A stretch of DNA of 33,335 nt from Deltaproteobacteria bacterium (GTDB lineage: Bacteria > Myxococcota_C > UBA6777): NCBI GenBank assembly GCA_002731275.1, contig PCBK01000163.1:1-33335 (forward strand). The letters are read 5' to 3'. Of the stretch, positions 10 to 33,335 are shown piece after piece (position 1 is the stretch's first letter; every line of letters begins with the position of its first letter). Position numbers and translations under genes: made by a program. Below the pieces are notes generated by a model that ran no database searches, was not told the origin of the DNA, and saw only the letters and a program-made list of their open reading frames with translations.

Positions 10-27
10 GCTCGCCTTGAGGCGAGC
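10..27. repeat. Stem-loop at left edge (7-bp stem, TTGA loop)
   Basis: GCTCGCC and GGCGAGC pair perfectly around a TTGA tetraloop. The hairpin overlaps the start of the 57-bp dispersed element found at both ends of the window. At the right end the equivalent hairpin (about 32708-32729) is degenerate and keeps only the inner GCC/GGC pairs. There is no T-tract, so it does not look like a simple terminator. Confidence 0.6.
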
Positions 28-73
28 GTACCCTCTCTATAGCACCGGGTTTTAACCCGGTGTTTCCAACCAA
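17..73 (+). repeat. 57-bp dispersed element with CACCGGG palindrome, left copy
   Basis: This stretch matches 32717-32773 at 54 of 57 positions. Its centre is a perfect inverted repeat at 43-62, with arms CACCGGGTT and AACCCGGTG around a TT spacer. The right copy has spacer TG, and the other two differences lie just after the palindrome. Both copies run in the same direction. High identity over a non-coding stretch marks it as a multi-copy element; function unknown. Confidence 0.85.
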
Positions 74-19894: not shown

Positions 19895-22800
19895 GTGAAG
19901 ATGTATTTTGTACGCCTGTCACCTATCTTTTTCTTGCTGTGGGGGTTTTTGTTGCTCGGGCCACAAGCCTGCTCCCCCGCCCCCACATGTATCGGTGATG
20001 TCGGTACGACAACCATCAACCCCAATGGGAGTCCGTGTGACAAACGTTGTGATTGCAACAACCAACAATACGTTGGATTCTGCAACGACAACAACATCTG
20101 CGAGTCCACAGCCCGTAAAGACTGCTCAGAAAAAGAGGAAAAACAAGCCTGCACTTTGCTCCCTATCGATGCCCAAGAAAACTGTAACGCAGGCCAACAG
20201 ATCTGCCAGCCCGCCGAACTCACAACCCAAAAATGGGGTGATTGCAAACCCGTTGCGCGCACCAAAGCAGAGGACACCCCCGCACTTTGCTTTGACGGCC
20301 TCGACAACGACTGTGACGGAAAATACGATAAATTCGATAAAGACTGCGCCTCCTTTTGCCAACCTGACAGCACCCGGCCATGCTACACAGGAGATCCAAA
20401 GACCCGCAATAGAGGGATCTGTAAACTCGGAACACAGACCTGCAATAAAGACGGTAAAGGCTACAGCGCCTGTCAGGATGAGGTGCTCCCACAAAAAGAA
20501 GAATGTAACGGAAAAGACGACAACTGCAACGGCGTTGTCGATGAAAACCCAGCAGGCTGTACATGTGACAAAGAAGGCGCGACGAGTCCTTGCTATGGTG
20601 GACCTGATGGAACCCTCAACCAAGGAATTTGTTCATCTGGCCTGCAAACTTGTACCAAGACAGCCGATGGCTTGATCTGGAGCGCGTGTGTTGGTGACAT
20701 CACCCCACAAGTCGAGAACTGTGATGGGATTGACAACGACTGTAACGGAAAAGTCGACGACAACAAGACCTGCAACCCTTGCGGTCTTCCTGGCACCACA
20801 CAGTCTTGCTTTGGTGGTAAGCTCCACCAACGCAACCAAGGGGTTTGTCGTGACGGCCTTCAGGTCTGTGGTGCAGATGGACTTTGGAGTCGATGCAGTA
20901 ACCAAACGCTCCCTGACGCCAAACAACGCTCAACAGGAGCCTTGTGTACTGCCGATAACTTTGACAGCCAATGTGAAGAATACAAGTGTGACGGGCTCGA
21001 TAATGATTGTGACGGTATCGTCGACGAAGTCTGTCCATACAGAGCCTGTGACACAGACGTCGATTGCCAGCTGATCCCCAAAAGCAAAGGCACGTTTGTT
21101 TGCCGATACAACCAATGTGTCCCCGAAAATGGGGGATGTACAAACGGTCAAACATCCTGTGGTGGTGTTTGTGTCGACACACAAACAAGCACCTCTCATT
21201 GCGGAAGCTGCGGCAATGGATGCCTCAGCGATCAAACATGCCAAAGCGGAAAGTGTACTTGCAAGCAAGGCACCACTCTTTGCGGCAGTCTATGTGTCGA
21301 CACCCAATCCAACAAAGCTCATTGTGGAAGTTGTCAGACCGCCTGTACCACCAATGAAGTTTGTCAAAGTGGAAAATGTATCGAAGACAAATGCCCCAAC
21401 GATCCAAACAAAACGGAGCCGGGTATTTGTGGCTGTGGAAAAGAAGACACTCCTGCTCAAACCGCCGACGATGACAACGACGGTCTCGCAAACTGCGTCG
21501 ACGCACATCCAAAAACTTCCTGCCCCTGCTTTGTGCTCAGTGACGTACAACAAGCCCACACACAATCCACGGCCGCTTGTGTACTACAATCCGCGAATTT
21601 TGACGGCGAGTATTCAGGTGTTCTCTACTCCAAAGGTGCAGAGCAATATGTCGTAGGTCTGCAATCTGAAAACAACAAATACGCCTGTGGGAAAGGATGT
21701 GTCCAGAATTGTAACGGACAACAAATGCAAGAAGTCGTGCTCACAAAGGACCAATTTGACGCCTGCTTGGAAATTGTAGAGGCAGGAATCAAGACTTGCA
21801 AGAATACCTGCGTGAAAGGGCAATCCTATTGCGCAGCAAGTTGTGTCGACGTGAGCAGCGACAGCGCACACTGCGGTCGATGTGGTCTGTCCTGTCCAGC
21901 CAACGTCACCTGTCAAAACGGCCAATGTCAATGTCCAGCAGGTTCGACGTTTTGCAATGGCCAATGTGTCAACACACAACTCTCACAACTACATTGTGGA
22001 CAGTGCAACAATCCGTGCAGTCAGGGTGATACATGTACTGCTGGTATATGCAAGACTTCAAGCTGCCCGGCAGGTCAAGCGCTCTGTGGCAGCGCCTGTG
22101 TAGACATCCTCAACAACACCACCCATTGTGGTGCATGTAACGCCAAATGTGACCAAGGCCGAAGCTGTCAAAATGGCGTCTGCCTCTGCCCTTCAGGACA
22201 GGTCTTTTGTAACGGATCATGTGTGAATATCCAAACAAACGATGCACATTGCGGACAATGTAACACCGCATGTTCAGGAGGACAGGCTTGCCAGGGAGGT
22301 CGATGCCAATGTATCGCCGGTAAAACACTCTGCTCAGGGACATGTGTGGATACATTCCAGAATGACTCGAACTGTGGGCAATGTGGTATCGCATGCGCAG
22401 CCGGACAGATATGTTCAGGTGGTGTATGTCTCTGCCCCTCGGGAAATGCTTACTGTGGCAACGCCTGTGTCGATCTTCAGACCTCCAATAGCCACTGTGG
22501 TGGGTGTGGGTTGGCTTGTGCGAGTGGACAAAGTTGCGCCAAAGGTGTTTGTACATGCCCAACAAACCAACTCAAATGTTCAAACACATGCGTCAATCCA
22601 AACACAAACAACAACCACTGCGGTCAATGCAACCAAGGCTGTGCAAAAGGCCAATGTCAACAGAACGTATGCCCAACAGACCAACTCTGCCCCTCTCACA
22701 ATTGCGCATTCACCTGTGATACCAACGCTCCCTGTCCCGACGGACTCACATGTGGCACGAGTAAAACATGTAACGGTTGGCAAAAGATGTTCCACCCAGC

Positions 22801-24262
22801 GAGCAGCTTGAACCCACTGACAGTCAAAGACATCGCAGCTGACACGACTGGTGCCATTTATCTCATCGGTGAGTACACCAACAACGCCAAGTTCGACACA
22901 TTCACGCTCAAAGGTCGCGGGAAGCAGGATATCTTCATCGCCAAACTCAACCCGCAAGGGACTACGTTGTGGGCCCAAAGCATCGGAGGCTCAAACGGAG
23001 ATATTGCTTCTGGAATTGCAGTCTCACCAGATGGCAAAACCGTTTACATCACGGGAACATTCGTCGCTCAATCGGGCCAAACCAATCCGTTTATGTTCCC
23101 GACCTCGTCAGGTGGCGATGTACCCCGCGCAGTTGTAGGACAAACCTACATGTATCTCGCCAAGGTCGATCCAAGCACGGGATTCGTCACACAAACTCTT
23201 GTGGTGGGTGCGCTCTCTCCTCTGTACGTATCGAATCTTGCAGTGGACGCACAATCCAACGTCTATGTGGCAGGGTATAATTACGACACAGGACCATTTA
23301 ATCCAGACCCATTTGGTCAAACAGGATTGTATGCGGAGCGAGGCGATGCTGGACTCATGTTTATTCTCGTGTACAACAGCAGCCTCAGGAATATCTTCGC
23401 AGATCGCATCAGTATGAAAGGATTTTCCAGCATTCCCAAATTACGTCTAGCGATCGTCCCCTCAAACAACCCTCAACAACCCCTCGCAAACATCTGGCTC
23501 ACAGGCTCATTCGCTACAGGCCTCACAGCAAAACAAACCTCCAGCGTCACCAAAACGATTTACGCTACAGGAAGTGATGATCTGTTTGTCGCCAAATGCA
23601 ACACAAACACCCATTTCATCGAATACCTGATCCCCATCAGCACATCGGGTCAGGAACGCGCAGGCACAATAACCCTCGAACAATCCAAGACTGGTCCAAC
23701 TGGCGCGCTTTTGGTCACAGGAGGTGTCAGCGGTAGTAGCGGAATCCGCTTGGGCAACAAAAGCCTCGCCAAAATCTCCCCCACATACGGGACTTTCCTT
23801 GCACGTATCACACCGACAGGAAACGTCGATTGGGCGCAAATTGTCTCGGATAAAAGCACCACCACATCCCCGACGATAGGTGTCGGCCTAAACAGTGATC
23901 CTGACGGGCGCTACTTCATGTACATCCATGGAACCGCGCCATACGGGACAACACCAAAACCCTCAAACTACGCAAATATTGGCTTTGGCTTCCTTGGCTT
24001 TACGCTCAACACCGCGACCCAAAAACCCATCTTTGAAACTGTTTCCCAAAGCATCAATGGCGCGACAAACGGAACAGTCACCCCCATCAGGATGCTACGA
24101 ACAGCCCAAAGTGTCATCCTCGTGGGATCGGTCAAAGGCTCCTTTGTCCTCCCCTATCCAAACCCCTCCACTAAAAACCAATTCTCGTTTGCGTCCTCTT
24201 TGCCAAGCGTCGAAGCAACATACCTCATGCGCATCCCACTCCCCTCACCTCCCACTCCATAA
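19895..24262 (+). CDS. Large exported Cys-rich protein: MopE-like motifs, nine Cys repeats, beta-propeller-like C-terminus
   Basis: 1455 residues from the GTG at 19895 (GGAG 4 nt upstream; ATG 19901 is the alternative). The signal sequence ends at GPQAC (C26), an atypical lipobox, so lipidation is possible but uncertain. Residues about 130-380 hold four MopE-type motifs (DGLDNDCDGKYD, DDNCNGVVDE, IDNDCNGKVDD, LDNDCDGIVDE), Asp-rich loops thought to bind calcium or copper. Residues about 410-920 hold nine units of about 41 residues, pattern LCxGxCVDxxxxxxHCGxCxxxC, split by a DDDNDGLANCVD segment near 525. Residues about 980-1455 look like SBBP-type beta-propeller repeats (GAIYLIGEYTNNAKF, IFIAKLNPQG, VYITGTF). 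This layout recurs in myxobacterial surface proteins; role unknown, perhaps adhesion or metal binding. Monocistronic. Confidence 0.85.
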   Translation: MKMYFVRLSPIFFLLWGFLLLGPQACSPAPTCIGDVGTTTINPNGSPCDKRCDCNNQQYVGFCNDNNICESTARKDCSEKEEKQACTLLPIDAQENCNAGQQICQPAELTTQKWGDCKPVARTKAEDTPALCFDGLDNDCDGKYDKFDKDCASFCQPDSTRPCYTGDPKTRNRGICKLGTQTCNKDGKGYSACQDEVLPQKEECNGKDDNCNGVVDENPAGCTCDKEGATSPCYGGPDGTLNQGICSSGLQTCTKTADGLIWSACVGDITPQVENCDGIDNDCNGKVDDNKTCNPCGLPGTTQSCFGGKLHQRNQGVCRDGLQVCGADGLWSRCSNQTLPDAKQRSTGALCTADNFDSQCEEYKCDGLDNDCDGIVDEVCPYRACDTDVDCQLIPKSKGTFVCRYNQCVPENGGCTNGQTSCGGVCVDTQTSTSHCGSCGNGCLSDQTCQSGKCTCKQGTTLCGSLCVDTQSNKAHCGSCQTACTTNEVCQSGKCIEDKCPNDPNKTEPGICGCGKEDTPAQTADDDNDGLANCVDAHPKTSCPCFVLSDVQQAHTQSTAACVLQSANFDGEYSGVLYSKGAEQYVVGLQSENNKYACGKGCVQNCNGQQMQEVVLTKDQFDACLEIVEAGIKTCKNTCVKGQSYCAASCVDVSSDSAHCGRCGLSCPANVTCQNGQCQCPAGSTFCNGQCVNTQLSQLHCGQCNNPCSQGDTCTAGICKTSSCPAGQALCGSACVDILNNTTHCGACNAKCDQGRSCQNGVCLCPSGQVFCNGSCVNIQTNDAHCGQCNTACSGGQACQGGRCQCIAGKTLCSGTCVDTFQNDSNCGQCGIACAAGQICSGGVCLCPSGNAYCGNACVDLQTSNSHCGGCGLACASGQSCAKGVCTCPTNQLKCSNTCVNPNTNNNHCGQCNQGCAKGQCQQNVCPTDQLCPSHNCAFTCDTNAPCPDGLTCGTSKTCNGWQKMFHPASSLNPLTVKDIAADTTGAIYLIGEYTNNAKFDTFTLKGRGKQDIFIAKLNPQGTTLWAQSIGGSNGDIASGIAVSPDGKTVYITGTFVAQSGQTNPFMFPTSSGGDVPRAVVGQTYMYLAKVDPSTGFVTQTLVVGALSPLYVSNLAVDAQSNVYVAGYNYDTGPFNPDPFGQTGLYAERGDAGLMFILVYNSSLRNIFADRISMKGFSSIPKLRLAIVPSNNPQQPLANIWLTGSFATGLTAKQTSSVTKTIYATGSDDLFVAKCNTNTHFIEYLIPISTSGQERAGTITLEQSKTGPTGALLVTGGVSGSSGIRLGNKSLAKISPTYGTFLARITPTGNVDWAQIVSDKSTTTSPTIGVGLNSDPDGRYFMYIHGTAPYGTTPKPSNYANIGFGFLGFTLNTATQKPIFETVSQSINGATNGTVTPIRMLRTAQSVILVGSVKGSFVLPYPNPSTKNQFSFASSLPSVEATYLMRIPLPSPPTP

Positions 24263-27431: not shown

Positions 27432-28604
27432 CTACGGACAACTCAACTCACGCATATACCTACGGATACTCGCCTTGTACCGTGTGGAACGCTGAAATAC
27501 CTGAAGGTGAGAACGCCAATGTGCACACGATGCGCGGCGACGCTTAAGTTGGTGTGTAAGGATGGAACCCAGCTCAAAACTGAGCACCTCTTTCGCACCC
27601 TGTTCCCGGAACGTTGAAAGTTTGTCACGTAACATATGTACAGCTCTATCATATCGTCCCTGTCCACGCAATCGCCTCAGCTCAAAAAGCAATTGTTCAA
27701 ACTTGGGGCCGTACATTGTCTTTGTAATCTTTGGTGGTTTGGGCCTTCTCACAATCGGTGGTGCAACGCGTGTCGGAGGACTCACACGTCGAGGGGGTTT
27801 TCGCATGACGACCTTTTCAGGCTCATGAACATACTCATCTGGACGACGCACCTTTGCCATTTTTGCCGGGTGATGAGGTGCTTTTCTCCTTATCACGTGG
27901 TGCTTTGTGATGGCGCGCCTTCTTACGGGCACACGTAGACGTTTGACGTTTCGCATGATCCGCTGGATGGCTCGATCATGTGTGTGTCTCTTACGAAGTG
28001 GCCAAAAGAGAGCCTGACCAGGCTTCAACAAGACTCTTCTGCCATCGACACCAACAAACAGGATCTTGCCTCGGTGGAGTCTTACAGAACCAGACCGCCG
28101 ATCTTGTACGATAGTAAAGGCCGTCCCCAACACTTCGATGTAGCCGTGAGAGACAAAGATCCGAAGTGGTTGTTGTCGGCGTCGACGTGGCACGACATCA
28201 AAAAAAGCCGTCCCCCGTTGCAATTGAAGTCCGTGCTTTTGACGCCGAAGCATCGCCTGTTCATGAAGAGTCAAGGAGACACGAAGCGCACGATCTTGAA
28301 CATCACATGTGTAGAGTTGACACTGTAACCCTTGTGTTCCCACACGTTTGATAGCCTGACCACGCCAGGAAAATTGTTGCCAATGTTGTGCAGCAGGACG
28401 CCAGCCTCCCCATACTATCACCATCAACGCCCCAACCGCGACGAGCGCATAATGCCAGGACTGTATCGCTCTGGTGGGTTGCACAGGCTGTATATCTTCT
28501 CCGCGGAGCTTTCGGAGGATACGCGCATTCGCCTCTGGTGAGAGCTCGTGCTGTTGGTATGTCTCGTCGAGCTGTTTGAGCCCTCTCAAAAATTCGTCAG
28601 ACAT
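27432..28604 (-). CDS. FecR-domain anti-sigma-like membrane protein with C-terminal helical repeat
   Basis: 390 residues. A short cytoplasmic N-terminus (1-48), where FecR-type proteins bind their sigma factor, precedes one membrane helix (50-67). A periplasmic FecR domain (about 95-205) has GTAFFDVVP, FVSHGYIEVLGTAFTIVQ, GSVRLHRGKILFV and LLKPGQALFW. A very basic Arg/Pro/His-rich linker (about 205-300) leads to a helical C-terminus (about 300-390, RRLRGQGRYDRAVHMLRDKL) resembling a TPR. No TonB receptor gene is nearby, so this is not a Fec-type iron system as such. The ATG at 28604 overlaps the sigma factor stop by 8 nt, indicating translational coupling. Confidence 0.85.
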   Translation of the reverse strand: MSDEFLRGLKQLDETYQQHELSPEANARILRKLRGEDIQPVQPTRAIQSWHYALVAVGALMVIVWGGWRPAAQHWQQFSWRGQAIKRVGTQGLQCQLYTCDVQDRALRVSLTLHEQAMLRRQKHGLQLQRGTAFFDVVPRRRRQQPLRIFVSHGYIEVLGTAFTIVQDRRSGSVRLHRGKILFVGVDGRRVLLKPGQALFWPLRKRHTHDRAIQRIMRNVKRLRVPVRRRAITKHHVIRRKAPHHPAKMAKVRRPDEYVHEPEKVVMRKPPRRVSPPTRVAPPIVRRPKPPKITKTMYGPKFEQLLFELRRLRGQGRYDRAVHMLRDKLSTFREQGAKEVLSFELGSILTHQLKRRRASCAHWRSHLQVFQRSTRYKASIRRYMRELSCP

Positions 28605-29100
28605 GTGAAAGATCCCATCCCTTCTGTGTCAAGCGTGATTGCGCACGTTGAAGGAGCTTGGACACGTACCCTTTGGACAAAGACAACATCTCACAAACCT
28701 GGGCTTGGGAGCACTCATCGAGATAGACCATACAAAAGACCACACGTTCTTTGGGAGGCAGCGCTCGGAGCTTTGCGTCGATCTCTTGAAGCTCCTCTTT
28801 GACCTGAATGTGATGTTCAGGTGTATCTCTAACATGCCCCACCTCAGGCACCAAGATCTGTTGTAGTTTCTTCCACATGGTACGCTCCCTTTGCAATCGC
28901 GTGAAACACATGTTCGTCGTCACTCGATAAAACCAAGGCTCCAACTTATCGAGCGCTTGTAACGTATCGAGTTGCTCAAGCATCTTCATAAACACATCTT
29001 GTGTGATATCTTCGGCCATACCTATATCGCCGCTACAAAACCGTAAGCAAAGTCGAAACACTCGATCTTTGTGGCGTTCGTAGAGCTCTTCAGCTGTCAT
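28597..29100 (-). CDS. ECF-type RNA polymerase sigma factor
   Basis: 167 residues from the ATG at 29100; AGGAAG lies 6 nt upstream, and a GTG at 29115 would place the site inside the gene. Region 2 (about 8-75) includes RVFRLCLRFCSGD, AEDITQDVFMKMLEQL and WFYRVTTNMCFTRLQRER. Region 4 (about 112-160) includes LPPKERVVFCMVYLDECSQ and EMLSLSKGYVSKLLQRAQSRL, a clear helix-turn-helix. There is no region 3, as usual for group 4. Its gene is coupled to a FecR-type anti-sigma gene. The likely targets are its own operon and perhaps the divergent exported-protein gene, but no paired promoter motif could be defined. Confidence 0.93.
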   Translation of the reverse strand: MTAEELYERHKDRVFRLCLRFCSGDIGMAEDITQDVFMKMLEQLDTLQALDKLEPWFYRVTTNMCFTRLQRERTMWKKLQQILVPEVGHVRDTPEHHIQVKEELQEIDAKLRALPPKERVVFCMVYLDECSQAQVCEMLSLSKGYVSKLLQRAQSRLTQKGWDLSHV

Positions 29101-29180
29101 CCATCGCTTCCTCACACATCAAACCAGTCAAATTCGTCCTATATCAACATCACACTGCATACAGAACACTTACGACACAA

Positions 29181-29201
29181 AGGAAAGTTTCCTCTTTTTT
29201 T
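29181..29201 (+). promoter_or_regulatory. Short dyad with T-run in the sigma factor / exported protein intergenic region
   Basis: AGGAA-AGT-TTCCT (5-bp stem) is followed by C and seven Ts on the plus strand, a small terminator-like element 80 nt before the start of the divergent plus-strand gene. The same dyad shows GGAAA on both strands, reminiscent of ECF -35 boxes, but no -10 element at the right distance was found on either strand. Confidence 0.3.
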
Positions 29202-29280
29202 GGAAAAAGTTGTCGTTGCGCTTCCCAAGTCTTTTCCGTATGCTTGCCCACACACACAAACACAAAGGCAGCGAAACGAA

Positions 29281-30195
29281 TTGAATGTACAGACCATAAG
29301 GATTGTGTTCATCCTCCTCACGGGGTGGATGATGAGTCCAACCAACACAGAATGCTGGGCCAACAAACCGACCCTCGTCTCTGTTGAGCTTTCACAGGGA
29401 AGTACCAAACTGTACAAACATCTGCACTTGCTCTCCCTCCAAAGAGACCTCCTGTGGCGACTCACACAAGAAGGCTTCGCTGTCGTCGCTCCCCAACACA
29501 AACCGACCTTCAAGATCACACTCCACGGGACAAAAACGCGCCTCTCTTTCTCCGTCAGGTATCGCAAACGCATACGGCGAGGGAACACAACCTTCCAAGC
29601 AAAAAGATGGCAACAAAGTCACCTCGAAGCCACACACCATATCGTCGATCTCTGTCGCCAATTTGTCAGGTTGCTCCCCAAACAACCAACCAAAACCAAA
29701 CAGGCCTCGCCCCGACGTCTGCGGTGGGAACTTGGACTCTCAGGTGGTGGCATGTACAGGATCTCAGGCTTCGATCCTCTCTTCCTATTTTCGATGAGAT
29801 GGGGACAACATAGAGGTTTTGGCATGCACATCGAGAGTCATCTGCTGCCCTCCGTTTGGGGTGACCTCTCGATCTTTGAATGGGGCGTCCAGCTCGGACC
29901 GACATGGCGTACACCACTCAACAAACACCTCGCCCTGGAGCTTGGGTTATTGCTCGGCTTCACCAACCACGCCTATACACTCACGTCTGCCAATAGCAGC
30001 GGCGCTGAGTGGGATTTTATGGGAAAATTCACGACGTGGTTGCTCTGGCAATGGCACCCTCTCTTTTGTTTGCGACCGTGGCTCTCTGTTGGATTCGCCT
30101 CGCGCGCACGCACACACCTCAACCAAAACAAAGAACTTTGGAAACGTTCAGCCTTCCAAGTCGGTGCAGGTCTCTCCATCGCTGTCACTCTTTAA
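29281..30195 (+). CDS. Exported protein with barrel-like C-terminal half, unknown function
   Basis: 304 residues from a TTG at 29281, chosen because a signal peptide (IRIVFILLTGWMMSPTNTECWA, cut at about 27; in part) starts there. The longer open frame to 29071 runs into the sigma factor gene, and the ribosome binding site is poor. Residues about 28-130 form a soluble part with LSQGSTKLYKHLHLLSL. Residues about 150-304 show alternating hydrophobic and polar residues with many Trp, Phe and Gly (WELGLSGGGMYRI, WGVQLGPTW, LALELGLLLGF, FQVGAGLSIAVTL), as in small outer-membrane beta-barrels. It diverges from the ECF sigma/FecR operon with 180 nt between starts. A regulated envelope protein is a reasonable guess. 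Confidence 0.65.
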   Translation: MNVQTIRIVFILLTGWMMSPTNTECWANKPTLVSVELSQGSTKLYKHLHLLSLQRDLLWRLTQEGFAVVAPQHKPTFKITLHGTKTRLSFSVRYRKRIRRGNTTFQAKRWQQSHLEATHHIVDLCRQFVRLLPKQPTKTKQASPRRLRWELGLSGGGMYRISGFDPLFLFSMRWGQHRGFGMHIESHLLPSVWGDLSIFEWGVQLGPTWRTPLNKHLALELGLLLGFTNHAYTLTSANSSGAEWDFMGKFTTWLLWQWHPLFCLRPWLSVGFASRARTHLNQNKELWKRSAFQVGAGLSIAVTL

Positions 30196-30293: not shown

Positions 30294-30343
30294 CAGGAAA
30301 ACAAAAAGCTCTGTCCACCATGTCAATATGGAAGGAGTCTGTC

Positions 30344-32515
30344 ATGACTGTGTTTCGATATCAGAAGATGTTTTTTTTATCGATGTTCGCTTTCTCTTTA
30401 ATGATGATGCAAGTCGGATGTGGTGACAATGTGATCAACCACAACGACGGAGGTAACCCCGATCAAACTGGCATCGCGTGCAAAAATGACTGCGAATGTC
30501 AGGCAAAAGACGCAGGTGTTTGCCAAAATAACCTTTGCAACGACGAAATTAAACGCGCTTCCCAATGCCCCGACTGCAACGGAAGTGTATGTCCTGCTGG
30601 TGAGGTCTGCTATGACGCAACAAGCAAAAAACTTGGGACGTGCCAAGCAGCCAACACGTGCAAAGATGATTGCGATTGCGCCGCGAGTGGTAAGGTCTGT
30701 GAAAGCGGAACTTGTCAAGCGCTCCGCCGAGCCACTCTTTGCCCCGATTGCAACTCAACCTCCTGCCCCAAAGGCGACCGGTGCTACGACGCAACAACCC
30801 AAACAGTCGGGACATGTAGTGGTTCCATCGCGTGTAAAAACGACTGTGAATGTCTCGCTAAAAACGCCGGCGTCTGCCAAAATGGTGTCTGTGACGCGAC
30901 CATCAAACGCGCCAACTTGTGTCCAGACTGCAATGGACAGACATGTCCAGCAGGTGAGGCTTGCTACGATGCAACGACCAAGACTGTCGGGACATGTAGC
31001 AGCTCTATCGCGTGCAAAAACGACTGTGAATGTCTCGCTAAAAACGCCGGCGTCTGCCAAAACGGTGTCTGTGACGCGACCATCAAACGTGCCAACATGT
31101 GCCCAGACTGTAACGGAAGTGTGTGTCCAGCAGGTGATGTCTGTTTCGACACCAAAGCCAAAACCATCGGGACATGTCCAGCGGCGACAACGTGTAAAGA
31201 CGATTGTGATTGCGATGCAGCAGGTGCAGGTGTCTGTGAAGGCGGTAGCTGTACAACGCTTGTCAACAGAGTTTCAAACTGCCCAAGCTGTACAGACCCA
31301 ACGTGTAAAGATGGCACGCGCTGTTTTGATGCTTCGACCAAAAAAGTAGGAACATGTGGTCCAGAGTCGTGTAAAAATGATTGTGATTGCATGAAAAATG
31401 GCGGTGTTTGTGAGGGTGGTCTTTGCAATAAACTCGTCGCCCGAGCCTCCATGTGCCCTGACTGTAATGGTAAGAGTTGCCCTGCTGGTGATGCGTGTTA
31501 TGACAGCACCACACAACAAGTCAGCACCTGCCTCGCCTGCAAAGATGATTGCGACTGTATGGGCAGAGGGCTCTTGTGTGCGAGTGGTACATGCCTCCCA
31601 TTACGTCGCATGTCCATGTGTCCAGATTGCAACTCGACCTCCTGCACCAAAGGAGACCGATGTTACGACAGCTCCACCAAGAAGCCTGGAGTGTGTAGTG
31701 GTGTCATCACTTGTAAAGATGATTGTGATTGTCTCGTCGCTGGATTTGGTGTCTGCGCAAATAATACCTGTCAACCTCTCAAAAGGATGACCCTCTGTCC
31801 CAGCTGCAATAGCTCAACATGCCCATCAGGTGACCGTTGCTACGAAGCGATGACCAATACTGTCGGGACATGTAAATCTTCGTCCTCTTGCAAAGATGAC
31901 TGTGATTGTATGAGTAAAGGTCTACTTTGTGACAGTGGAACATGTAGGGCGCTACAACGTCCGTCTTTTTGTCAATTCTGTAGTTCTTCAACATGTACAA
32001 CAGGACAACGCTGTTACGACGCGACAAACAAGCAACCAGGAATCTGTGGTTCCAAGACCTGCACAGATGATTGTGATTGTATTGGGACAGGTACGGCTTG
32101 TATTTCAGGTCAATGTGTCCCTGCAGGCCGAAAAAACCAGTGTACTTGTAATCGCGCAAATTGTCCGGCTGGGACCAAGTGCGAGCTAAGCACAACAGGA
32201 AAGGTCCGCACCTGTCCCAGCTCTGGCACATTTGCTTGTGGTGAGGTGGCAGATTGTACAAAAGGAACACAATACTGCGAAACGGGTATTGGTGGTGCAA
32301 ACCCTTGTGGTGGTGGCTCTCCCACACCCCCACAATGTGGCGCAAACTGCACCGTCATGAATTGCAGTAACGGCAACTACGCCTGTATGTGTCGCTCCTT
32401 CCAGTGTAAAGCGCTCCCCACTAACTGCCAAGGTTGCTCTTGTCTTGGTGCAAGTGGTGCCTGTTCATGCCAAACAGTAGATGGCAACCCCGTCGTGACC
32501 TGCGCCTTCCCCTGA
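30344..32515 (+). CDS. Lipoprotein with ten tandem ten-cysteine repeats
   Basis: 723 residues from the ATG at 30344, which has AAGGAG 6 nt upstream. The signal sequence ends at QVGC (C26), an imperfect but plausible lipobox. After a short NHNDGGNPDQ linker come ten units of about 58 residues (about 46-625), most with ten Cys: CKxDCxC ... GVCxxGxC ... CPDCNxxxCPxGxxCYDxxTxxxGTC. Two flavours occur, an IKRAN/CPAG type and an LRR/KGDRCYD type. A C-terminal Cys-rich cap without the repeat follows (about 626-723). With even Cys numbers each unit can be a disulfide knot, giving a stiff rod on the cell surface. No known family assigned. The stop codon lies inside the first box of the right-hand repeat array. 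Confidence 0.85.
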   Translation: MTVFRYQKMFFLSMFAFSLMMMQVGCGDNVINHNDGGNPDQTGIACKNDCECQAKDAGVCQNNLCNDEIKRASQCPDCNGSVCPAGEVCYDATSKKLGTCQAANTCKDDCDCAASGKVCESGTCQALRRATLCPDCNSTSCPKGDRCYDATTQTVGTCSGSIACKNDCECLAKNAGVCQNGVCDATIKRANLCPDCNGQTCPAGEACYDATTKTVGTCSSSIACKNDCECLAKNAGVCQNGVCDATIKRANMCPDCNGSVCPAGDVCFDTKAKTIGTCPAATTCKDDCDCDAAGAGVCEGGSCTTLVNRVSNCPSCTDPTCKDGTRCFDASTKKVGTCGPESCKNDCDCMKNGGVCEGGLCNKLVARASMCPDCNGKSCPAGDACYDSTTQQVSTCLACKDDCDCMGRGLLCASGTCLPLRRMSMCPDCNSTSCTKGDRCYDSSTKKPGVCSGVITCKDDCDCLVAGFGVCANNTCQPLKRMTLCPSCNSSTCPSGDRCYEAMTNTVGTCKSSSSCKDDCDCMSKGLLCDSGTCRALQRPSFCQFCSSSTCTTGQRCYDATNKQPGICGSKTCTDDCDCIGTGTACISGQCVPAGRKNQCTCNRANCPAGTKCELSTTGKVRTCPSSGTFACGEVADCTKGTQYCETGIGGANPCGGGSPTPPQCGANCTVMNCSNGNYACMCRSFQCKALPTNCQGCSCLGASGACSCQTVDGNPVVTCAFP
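30833..31192 (+). repeat. Near-identical adjacent 180-bp repeat units within the lipoprotein gene
   Basis: Units three and four of the cysteine repeat start at 30833 and 31013, exactly 180 nt apart. Their first 84 or so nucleotides differ at only three positions, all synonymous, while the second halves have diverged. This points to a recent duplication or gene conversion. Confidence 0.85.
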
Positions 32516-32716: not shown

Positions 32717-32773
32717 TTGAGGCGAGCGTACCCTCTCTATAGCACCGGGTTTGAACCCGGTGGTACCAACCAA
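32717..32773 (+). repeat. 57-bp dispersed element with CACCGGG palindrome, right copy
   Basis: Matches 17-73 at 54 of 57 positions and runs in the same direction. The palindrome is at 32743-32762 with a TG spacer. Although its arms superficially recall a tRNA T-arm, no acceptor, D or anticodon arms are present. Confidence 0.85.
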
Positions 32774-32896
32774 ATGAATCCCTCTATCCAATCATTCAAC
32801 CCATGCTCCCGTCTCCAGAAACGTTTGTAAAAAAAATACGCCCAAAGGATACGAATGTAACCATGCGCGCATGGGCATTGGGATACGAATGGCCAT

Positions 32897-33077
32897 CTTT
32901 CGAGAGGAGGGACTATTTACCCGATATATACAGGGGATTCTAGATTTCTGATCCGACAGACGTTGCACTTGCGTCCAAAGCAAAGCGTCCTATGAGGACG
33001 TTTGCTCCGTACGCTTTGCAACATATGCCTCGACAAACTCTCCACCCTGTCACTTCGTGACATCCCTCCTCTCAAGC
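32897..33077 (+). repeat. Tandem structured repeat, unit 1 (181 bp)
   Basis: Opens with CTTTCGAGAGGAGGGA and ATTTACCCGATAT, then the core box (32948-32976). A variable insert forms a bulged 10-bp hairpin (32980-33005, GCAAA-CGTCC arms). The unit closes with CAAACTCTCCACCCTG, a TGTCAC-TTC-GTGACA hairpin (33048-33062) and TCCCTCCTCTC, which pairs with the opening of unit 2. Confidence 0.75.
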
Positions 33078-33093
33078 CTTTCGAGAGGAGGGA
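33063..33093. repeat. 11-bp hairpin joining units 1 and 2
   Basis: TCCCTCCTCTC and GAGAGGAGGGA pair perfectly around a 9-nt loop at the junction of the two tandem units. Unit 1 begins, and the window ends, with a half of the same hairpin. Confidence 0.8.
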
Positions 33094-33335
33094 GCATTTA
33101 CCCGATATGTACGAGAGATACTTGAATGCTGTTCCGGCGGACGTTGCACTTGTGTCTCCGCAAACTCCCCTGATTCCACGAGTTCATCCCCTCCTTCCTG
33201 GCGGATATAGCAAGCCATATCCTTGGATTCCTTTTTACTTTCGGGATTGCAGTGGGTTTTTTGCGTCTTCACTTGCAATCATCCACCTCAACAAACTCTC
33301 CACCCTGAGCCTTCGGCTCTTCCCTCCTCTCAAGC
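33078..33335 (+). repeat. Tandem structured repeat, unit 2 (at least 258 bp, cut by the window end)
   Basis: Shares with unit 1 the opening 30 or so nucleotides, the core box (33129-33159) and the closing block. Its insert is different and longer, with a GGATAT/ATATCC hairpin (33203-33222) that matches the left-end array rather than unit 1. The closing hairpin is GAGCC-TTC-GGCTC (33307-33319): new stem, same loop. It ends inside the next junction hairpin. No plausible gene is seen in 32516-33335. Confidence 0.75.

What the first reader, a model, noticed from the sequence alone, without database searches (positions are those of the whole stretch)
30344..32515. Surface lipoprotein of ten disulfide-rich repeats, still duplicating
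Ten units with about ten Cys each make a predicted disulfide-knotted rod of unrecognised family. Units three and four are nearly identical over their first 84 nt with synonymous differences only, and two unit flavours alternate, suggesting repeat shuffling and length variation between strains.
Basis: partly seen in the sequence, partly recalled or inferred. Interest (0 to 1): 0.5.

Follow-up and report, generated by a model that had tools for sequence, protein, structure and literature searches.

The report
Ten-module disulfide-rich stalk-like surface protein
A myxobacteria-like bacterium encodes an exported protein built from ten copies of a cysteine-packed module that is only partly recognised by today's family libraries, and copy number differs between related genera, which fits an adjustable rigid stalk; its function is untested.

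Summary
The repeat array is real: gene 30344-32515 encodes 723 residues with ten units of exactly ten Cys each, all ten invariant; shuffled versions essentially never give this. Units 3 and 4 differ by three synonymous changes over 84 nt. The two flavours do not strictly alternate.

No Pfam, NCBIfam or PDB model covers the whole unit, but it is not family-less. Its first half is a relative of DUF7107 (profile match E 1.2e-7) and, more weakly, of TIGR04201, the cysteine repeat of the Myxococcus TraA receptor (25 of 66 units, best E 2e-4). A second hairpin half completes the module (AlphaFold pLDDT 85). The same genome carries at least two longer sister arrays.

Repeat turnover is supported between genera: counterparts have 10, 7, 4 and 4 units and the window's units resemble each other most, whereas the sister arrays keep number and order. 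Between strains it is untested.

Best reading: a rigid spacer lifting a C-terminal Cys-rich tip off the outer membrane. Lipid anchoring is likely but the lipobox is off-consensus. New variant of a known kind.

The parts
30333..30337 (+). putative ribosome-binding site AGGAG, 6 nt before ATG
   Evidence: sequence
30344..32515 (+). gene of the ten-unit Cys-rich exported protein, 723 aa
30344..30421 (+). signal peptide ending at Cys26 (QVGC; off-consensus lipobox)
   Evidence: sequence; pattern test
30422..30478 (+). short polar tether between Cys26 and unit 1
   Evidence: sequence
30479..30658 (+). unit 1 (flavour A)
30659..30832 (+). unit 2 (flavour B)
30833..31012 (+). unit 3 (flavour A)
31013..31192 (+). 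unit 4 (flavour A)
31193..31369 (+). unit 5 (B-like, divergent)
31370..31537 (+). unit 6 (flavour A)
31538..31711 (+). unit 7 (flavour B)
31712..31888 (+). unit 8 (flavour B)
31889..32059 (+). unit 9 (flavour B)
32060..32233 (+). unit 10 (divergent; falls outside the clade of units 1-9)
30782..31177 (+). tandem array, period 180, 2.2 copies, 83% matches
30827..30916 (+). nearly identical tract, copy 1 (3 synonymous differences to copy 2)
31007..31096 (+). nearly identical tract, copy 2
32225..32512 (+). C-terminal Cys-rich cap domain (16 Cys), candidate tip
29071..30195 (+). upstream ORF on the same strand, no Pfam or PHROG match, no counterpart in the 4 related genomes; possible operon partner
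28597..29115 (-). ECF-type sigma factor, divergent neighbour
27432..28604 (-). FecR-domain protein (possible anti-sigma/regulator), overlaps the sigma gene

Best explanation
An exported, probably lipid-anchored stalk. The N-terminus holds the protein in the outer membrane; ten disulfide-locked modules of about 58 residues form an extended, protease-resistant spacer; the C-terminal 16-Cys cap is the membrane-distal tip that would touch a ligand, surface or neighbouring cell. Each module is two hairpin halves: a DUF7107/TIGR04201-like half and a second CPxGxxC half. Unit number changes by duplication or gene conversion of whole units, so stalk length is evolvable. Shown by computation: export signal, ten-by-ten Cys array, module model, half-module homology, between-genus copy-number change, unit 3/4 tract. 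Inferred: lipidation, surface exposure, disulfide state, rod shape, tip role, adhesion or recognition function.
For: 10 Cys invariant in 66 of 66 units taken for the model (relatives' units were taken only if they met a ten-Cys pattern, so invariance there is partly by selection; one search shows it for all ten window units). AlphaFold unit pLDDT 85.3, helix plus two hairpins. First half matches DUF7107-type repeats, hhalign probability 94, E 1.2e-7, and 50 of 66 units hit DUF7107 weakly, best E 5e-4; 25 of 66 hit TIGR04201, best E 2e-4. TIGR04201 is the TraA repeat for which a rigid stalk was proposed (PMC3325183, passages read) and where single repeats are dispensable (PMC6372800, passages read). 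Counterparts with 10, 7, 4, 4 units; closest unit lies in the same array for 10 of 10 window units (vs G003) and 6 of 7 G003 units, against 2 of 17, 0 of 17 and 0 of 12 in sister arrays. Window units 1-9 form a clade (support 0.886). DsbA domains are present in 5 of 5 family genomes.
Against: Lipobox off-consensus in the window protein and also in the G002 and G004 counterparts. Inter-unit geometry uncertain (pTM 0.41; five models 61-83 pLDDT). The C-terminal cap has no known fold or function and differs from the cap of the other three counterparts; it occurs only in G000 and, as a stand-alone small protein, in G003 (2 of 5 genomes). No synteny between the window gene and its counterparts, so orthology is not proven and part of the apparent turnover could reflect paralogy. 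No conserved neighbour hints at adhesion. None of this is experimental.
Confidence: 0.5

Rival explanations
1. Matrix or coat protein: many copies cross-link through intermolecular disulfides into an insoluble cell coat or extracellular matrix, like cysteine-rich eggshell membrane protein, so length matters less than cross-link density.
For: The profile's weak PDB hits include the 4-module eggshell membrane protein 9pgb (E 1.9, not significant) with the same CPxGxxC motif. The genome carries several large Cys-rich exported proteins.
Against: Cys number per unit is even and fixed at ten, as expected for intra-unit pairing; a signal peptide with a candidate anchor Cys suggests one molecule per anchor rather than a secreted matrix; PDB hit not significant.
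Confidence: 0.17
2. Metal- or thiol-binding envelope protein (metallothionein-like store or redox buffer).
For: 16% Cys; a few units give chance-level hits to zinc-finger and metallothionein models.
Against: Export plus DsbA machinery favours disulfides; hairpin halves with Gly and Pro between Cys match disulfide modules; no His conserved alongside the ten Cys.
Confidence: 0.07
3. Secreted inhibitor or toxin-like multi-domain protein (each unit a knottin acting on proteases or receptors of prey or competitors).
For: Small, Cys-dense modules resemble inhibitor and toxin folds in general; some units give non-significant hits to TILa, Dickkopf and EB models.
Against: Units diverge mainly outside Cys without an obvious conserved reactive loop; the membrane-anchor Cys argues against free secretion; no fold match.
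Confidence: 0.08
4. The unit-number differences reflect comparison of non-orthologous genes, and the array is not turning over unusually.
For: No shared neighbours between the window locus and its counterparts and different C-terminal caps.
Against: It is the only CxxC-type array found in its genome and there is one in each of three of four relatives; turnover also appears between the G003 and G004 counterparts, which share a cap (6 of 7 closest in own array); the unit 3/4 tract dates a recent event inside this gene.
Confidence: 0.18

Closest known systems
TIGR04201 (Myxo_Cys_RPT), the cysteine-rich repeat of Myxococcus xanthus TraA
   Same: Exported protein with tandem Cys repeats proposed as a stalk; first half of the unit is recognisably related (25 of 66 units, best E 2e-4).
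   Different: TraA repeats are about 20 aa with 3 invariant Cys; here units are about 58 aa with 10. No PA14 hit and no MYXO-CTERM hit in the window protein.
DUF7107 (PF23416)
   Same: First half has the C-x5-C-x5-C-x4-C pattern; hhalign E 1.2e-7 to DUF7107-type repeats.
   Different: Our unit adds one Cys (CxxxCxC) and a second hairpin half; the whole protein has no DUF7107 hit at E 10.
Sister arrays in the same genome (C188, 17 units; C13, 12 units) and in four related genomes
   Same: Same ten-Cys module, same order of Cys.
   Different: CC instead of CxxC between the halves; unit number and order largely conserved between genera; interspersed with a second Cys-rich domain.
Avian cysteine-rich eggshell membrane protein (PDB 9pgb)
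   Same: Tandem modules with a CPxGxxC motif similar to the second half.
   Different: Match not significant (E 1.9); a vertebrate matrix protein.
Dickkopf / EGF-like modules
   Same: Small disulfide-dense extracellular modules.
   Different: Only chance-level sequence hits and no fold match at E 0.001.

Membership tests
TIGR04201 repeat family (TraA stalk repeat) | score at or above the curated cut-off (25 bits) | tested here: inconclusive
   Window protein as a whole: 0 families at E 10. Unit 2: 8.3 bits. In the genome-wide scan one stretch in sister array C188 reaches 26.3 bits. No window unit is shown to pass; a sister array has one passing stretch.
TraA receptor | PA14-like variable domain | tested here: not met
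   No PA14 hit in the Pfam scan up to E 10.
TraA receptor | MYXO-CTERM sorting tag | tested here: not met
   No hit in the NCBIfam scan; the protein ends in the Cys-rich cap. The tag exists elsewhere in the genome (19 matches).
DUF7107 | score at or above the Pfam gathering score (24.6 bits) | tested here: not met
   Whole protein no hit; single units only weak hits, best E 5e-4 over 50 of 66 units. Homology of the first half is supported.
Bacterial lipoprotein | consensus lipobox before the anchor Cys | tested here: not met
   QVGC fails a recalled PS00013-type pattern; the G003 counterpart and both sister arrays pass, G002/G004 fail. Not decisive, since lipoboxes can be degenerate.
Disulfide-bonded extracellular module | cysteines oxidised and paired within the unit | not testable with these tools
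   Only indirect: even fixed number, export, DsbA present.

The most novel reading that the evidence does not exclude
In a lineage held apart from the classical myxobacteria at phylum level, an adjustable-length, swappable-tip surface stalk system has evolved, working like TraA's display stalk: unit number turns over quickly in one array while its sister arrays are frozen, tips are exchanged between proteins, and the load of disulfide modules is served by giant multi-DsbA oxidases. Stalk length and tip would set contact specificity or reach between cells.
Probability: 0.12. Interest if true: 0.62.

Novelty: new variant of a known kind. Interest (0 to 1): 0.36.

Why it matters
It describes a two-hairpin, ten-Cys module that Pfam and NCBIfam do not cover as a whole, ties it to the repeat of a genetically studied cell-contact receptor, and gives a natural comparison in which one array changes length while sister arrays in the same genomes do not. 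If the stalk reading holds, it offers a simple system for asking how surface-display length evolves. It also points to a bacterial lineage with an unusually Cys-rich envelope and matching oxidation machinery.

Tried and rejected
Whole-protein family and structure matches: Pfam (only a sub-threshold Tox-WTIP hit, E 0.38), NCBIfam (none), PHROGs (none), PDB by sequence (none), Foldseek for unit and triplet (0 with E <= 0.001), VIA-align for the unit (0 of 48 with Z >= 2). The fold is therefore neither identified nor shown to be new.

Synteny as proof of orthology: failed; the upstream ORF has no counterpart in 4 of 4 relatives. Sigma/FecR neighbours as a functional clue: no consistent neighbourhood at the sister arrays, so not used. 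The promoter and terminator scan gave only consensus matches and was not used.

Extra-Cys pairing idea (C2 of half one with C6 of half two locking the halves together): plausible from 4+1 / 4+1 counting, but single halves with five Cys occur in G032, so left as a guess. Internal symmetry of the two halves: hhalign aligned them (18 columns) but with probability 0.5 per cent and E 0.059, so homology of the halves to each other is not claimed.

C-terminal cap search in the phylum of G032: 0 of 189; it does ring in G000 and G003.

Rows dropped before counts: the array fragments cut by contig ends (G004 C124, G001 C455) were left out of unit counts. In one search only units meeting a regular expression entered the model alignment (66 units: 10 of 10 from the window; of L039, L040, L041, L042 and L043, 16 of 17, 16 of 17, 14 of 15, 7 of 9 and 3 of 4 by the counts). 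In A7 30 of the 40 half-units listed were used.

Papers: PMC13184517, PMC3325183, PMC6372800 - passages only. Searches without a paper on this module; on DUF7107; on tandem DsbA.

Full report
What is there. The window is G000:C152:1-33335, within a 10.75-Mb genome held as 200 contigs (completeness 94.65, contamination 5.5). At 30344-32515 on the + strand lies one gene for a 723-residue exported protein: a signal peptide ending in Cys26, a short polar tether, ten tandem units, and a C-terminal Cys-rich cap. The Cys count is 10 in each of 10 units, 1 before and 16 after the array. All ten Cys, plus D5, R27 and G42 of unit 1, are invariant in the ten-unit alignment. A ten-Cys spacing pattern fitted to the units is found 10 times, against a mean of 0.0005 in 2000 shuffles.

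Recent change. Units 3 and 4 share 84 nt with three synonymous differences (dS 0.20 on 17 synonymous sites, dN 0), flanked by older similarity: the remainder of the two units has dS 1.65, and the tails of units 2 and 3 dS 1.06. For scale, the counterpart genes of the close species pair G002/G004 have dS 0.167, so the tract is about as old as that species split; with 17 synonymous sites the estimate is rough. The similarity profile peaks over 30827-30916 and falls off on both sides, which looks like duplication followed by, or replaced by, gene conversion. The longest exact repeat is 47 nt.

Flavours. By identity and tree, units 1, 3, 4 and 6 form one group (support 0.953) and units 7 and 9 another (0.928), with 2, 5 and 8 nearer the latter (supports on 55-residue units are indicative only). 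The order is A-B-A-A-B-A-B-B-B-10. Strict alternation fails.

What the module is. No Pfam, NCBIfam, PHROG or PDB-sequence family matches the whole protein. With 66 units from the window and from related loci, AlphaFold2 gives a single-unit model of pLDDT 85.3 and pTM 0.60: a helix at residues 5-11, hairpin 13-16/19-22 and hairpin 42-45/50-53. A three-unit model has pLDDT 82.8 but pTM 0.41, so how the units pack is not established. Foldseek found no solved structure at E <= 0.001 for either model. Profile comparison places the first half next to DUF7107-type repeats taken from three loci of other genomes (probability 94, E 1.2e-7, 18 columns). Single units hit DUF7107 in 50 of 66 cases (best E 5e-4) and TIGR04201 in 25 of 66 (best E 2e-4). 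So the unit is a DUF7107/TIGR04201-like half joined to a second CPxGxxC hairpin half.

Relatives. Two sister arrays in the same genome, on C188 (17 units) and C13 (12 units), use the same ten-Cys order but with CC where the window has CxxC. All 4 other held genomes of the family carry such arrays. The relatives list passes straight from 'same family' to 'same domain', so in the held set this family stands alone up to phylum level. Named members found in genome contigs are MAGs deposited as Myxococcales, Myxococcota or Deltaproteobacteria (JALTMC01, SBHC01, JAKLKB01, CAUJFU01, JAGQIK01). A unit profile matched 8 of 290 sampled genomes at E <= 0.001: the five family members strongly and three others weakly. 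In the phylum of G032, which I take to be Myxococcota from protein style only, it matched 16 of 195 at E <= 1e-5; in several of these the module sits inside long arrays of DUF7107-type repeats.

Turnover test. The closest counterparts of the window gene (CxxC type) have 7 units in G003 and 4 each in G004 and G002; none was found in G001. For 10 of 10 window units the most similar unit lies in the window array rather than in G003; for G003 this holds for 6 of 7 (against G000) and 6 of 7 (against G004). For the C188-type sister array it holds for 2 of 17 (G000 vs G003) and 0 of 17 (G003 vs G001), and for the C13 type for 0 of 12 (G000 vs G003); these arrays have 17, 17, 17, 15 and 12, 12, 11, 11 units in largely matching order. 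So in the same genomes one array type appears to turn over while two are stable. Limits: there is no synteny between the window locus and the counterparts, the window cap differs from theirs, and the window-type proteins are more diverged overall, which itself weakens unit-to-unit matching. Between the two closest species the number is equal, 4 and 4, and matches unit for unit. Variation among strains is untested.

How it may work. The nearest studied analogue is TraA of M. xanthus: nine Cys repeats (TIGR04201), proposed to be a rigid stalk presenting a PA14-like domain (PMC3325183, passages); the first four tandem repeats can each be deleted without loss of function and one species naturally lacks two (PMC6372800, passages), while distal repeats there are essential or nearly so. 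The window protein lacks a PA14 hit and the MYXO-CTERM tag, so it is not a TraA; the claim is only that it may work in a similar way, with the C-terminal cap as tip. The cap occurs fused here and as a stand-alone small protein in G003, which suggests that tips are exchanged. Lipidation is uncertain: QVGC fails a recalled PROSITE-type pattern, while the G003 counterpart and both sister arrays pass.

Disulfide capacity. DSBA-domain matches occur in 5 of 5 family genomes (17 in the window's genome). Several lie in single reading frames with 4, 6, 7 or 8 CP[FY]C active sites spaced about 190 residues (Pfam confirms 4, 6 and 7 Thioredoxin_4/DSBA domains in three of them). This fits an envelope rich in disulfide proteins, but it is a correlation; related DsbA proteins, many with two or more matches in one frame, are widespread in the phylum of G032 (143 of 146 genomes have a match).

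Verdict. The stalk reading is the best available and is inferred. Interest moderate.

Noticed in passing
G000:C36:6929-10156 (L107:2693-6196), G000:C1 (L106:3219-5735), G003:C54 (L108:3245-8350), G002:C128 (L109:2713-6993): Giant tandem DsbA proteins: single frames with 6, 4, 8 and 7 CP[FY]C thiol-oxidase domains about 190 residues apart. One text search for tandem DsbA found no paper; shorter multi-match frames are widespread in the phylum of G032.
   Followed up: partly
window 19895-24262 (+): A 1455-aa protein with six STIG1 stretches, MopE-type metal-binding motifs and an SBBP beta-propeller hit (138 Cys in its open frame) in the same contig.
   Followed up: no
window 32717-33335, also window 17-73; L009:4062-5322; L008:9965-10145: A dispersed, internally repetitive non-coding element downstream of the gene recurs beside both sister Cys-rich genes (about 71-100% identity; 3 of 8 loci of the own genome examined), and the contig ends inside it; no match in 11 loci of related genomes.
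   Followed up: partly
   Followed up: partly
window 27432-30195: ECF sigma factor and FecR-domain gene diverge from an ORF with no family match that precedes the repeat gene on its strand; that ORF has no counterpart in 4 of 4 relatives.
   Followed up: partly
L067:418-3888 (G003:C14): A 1157-aa protein with 18 STIG1 stretches lies next to a gene with ten-Cys units.
   Followed up: no
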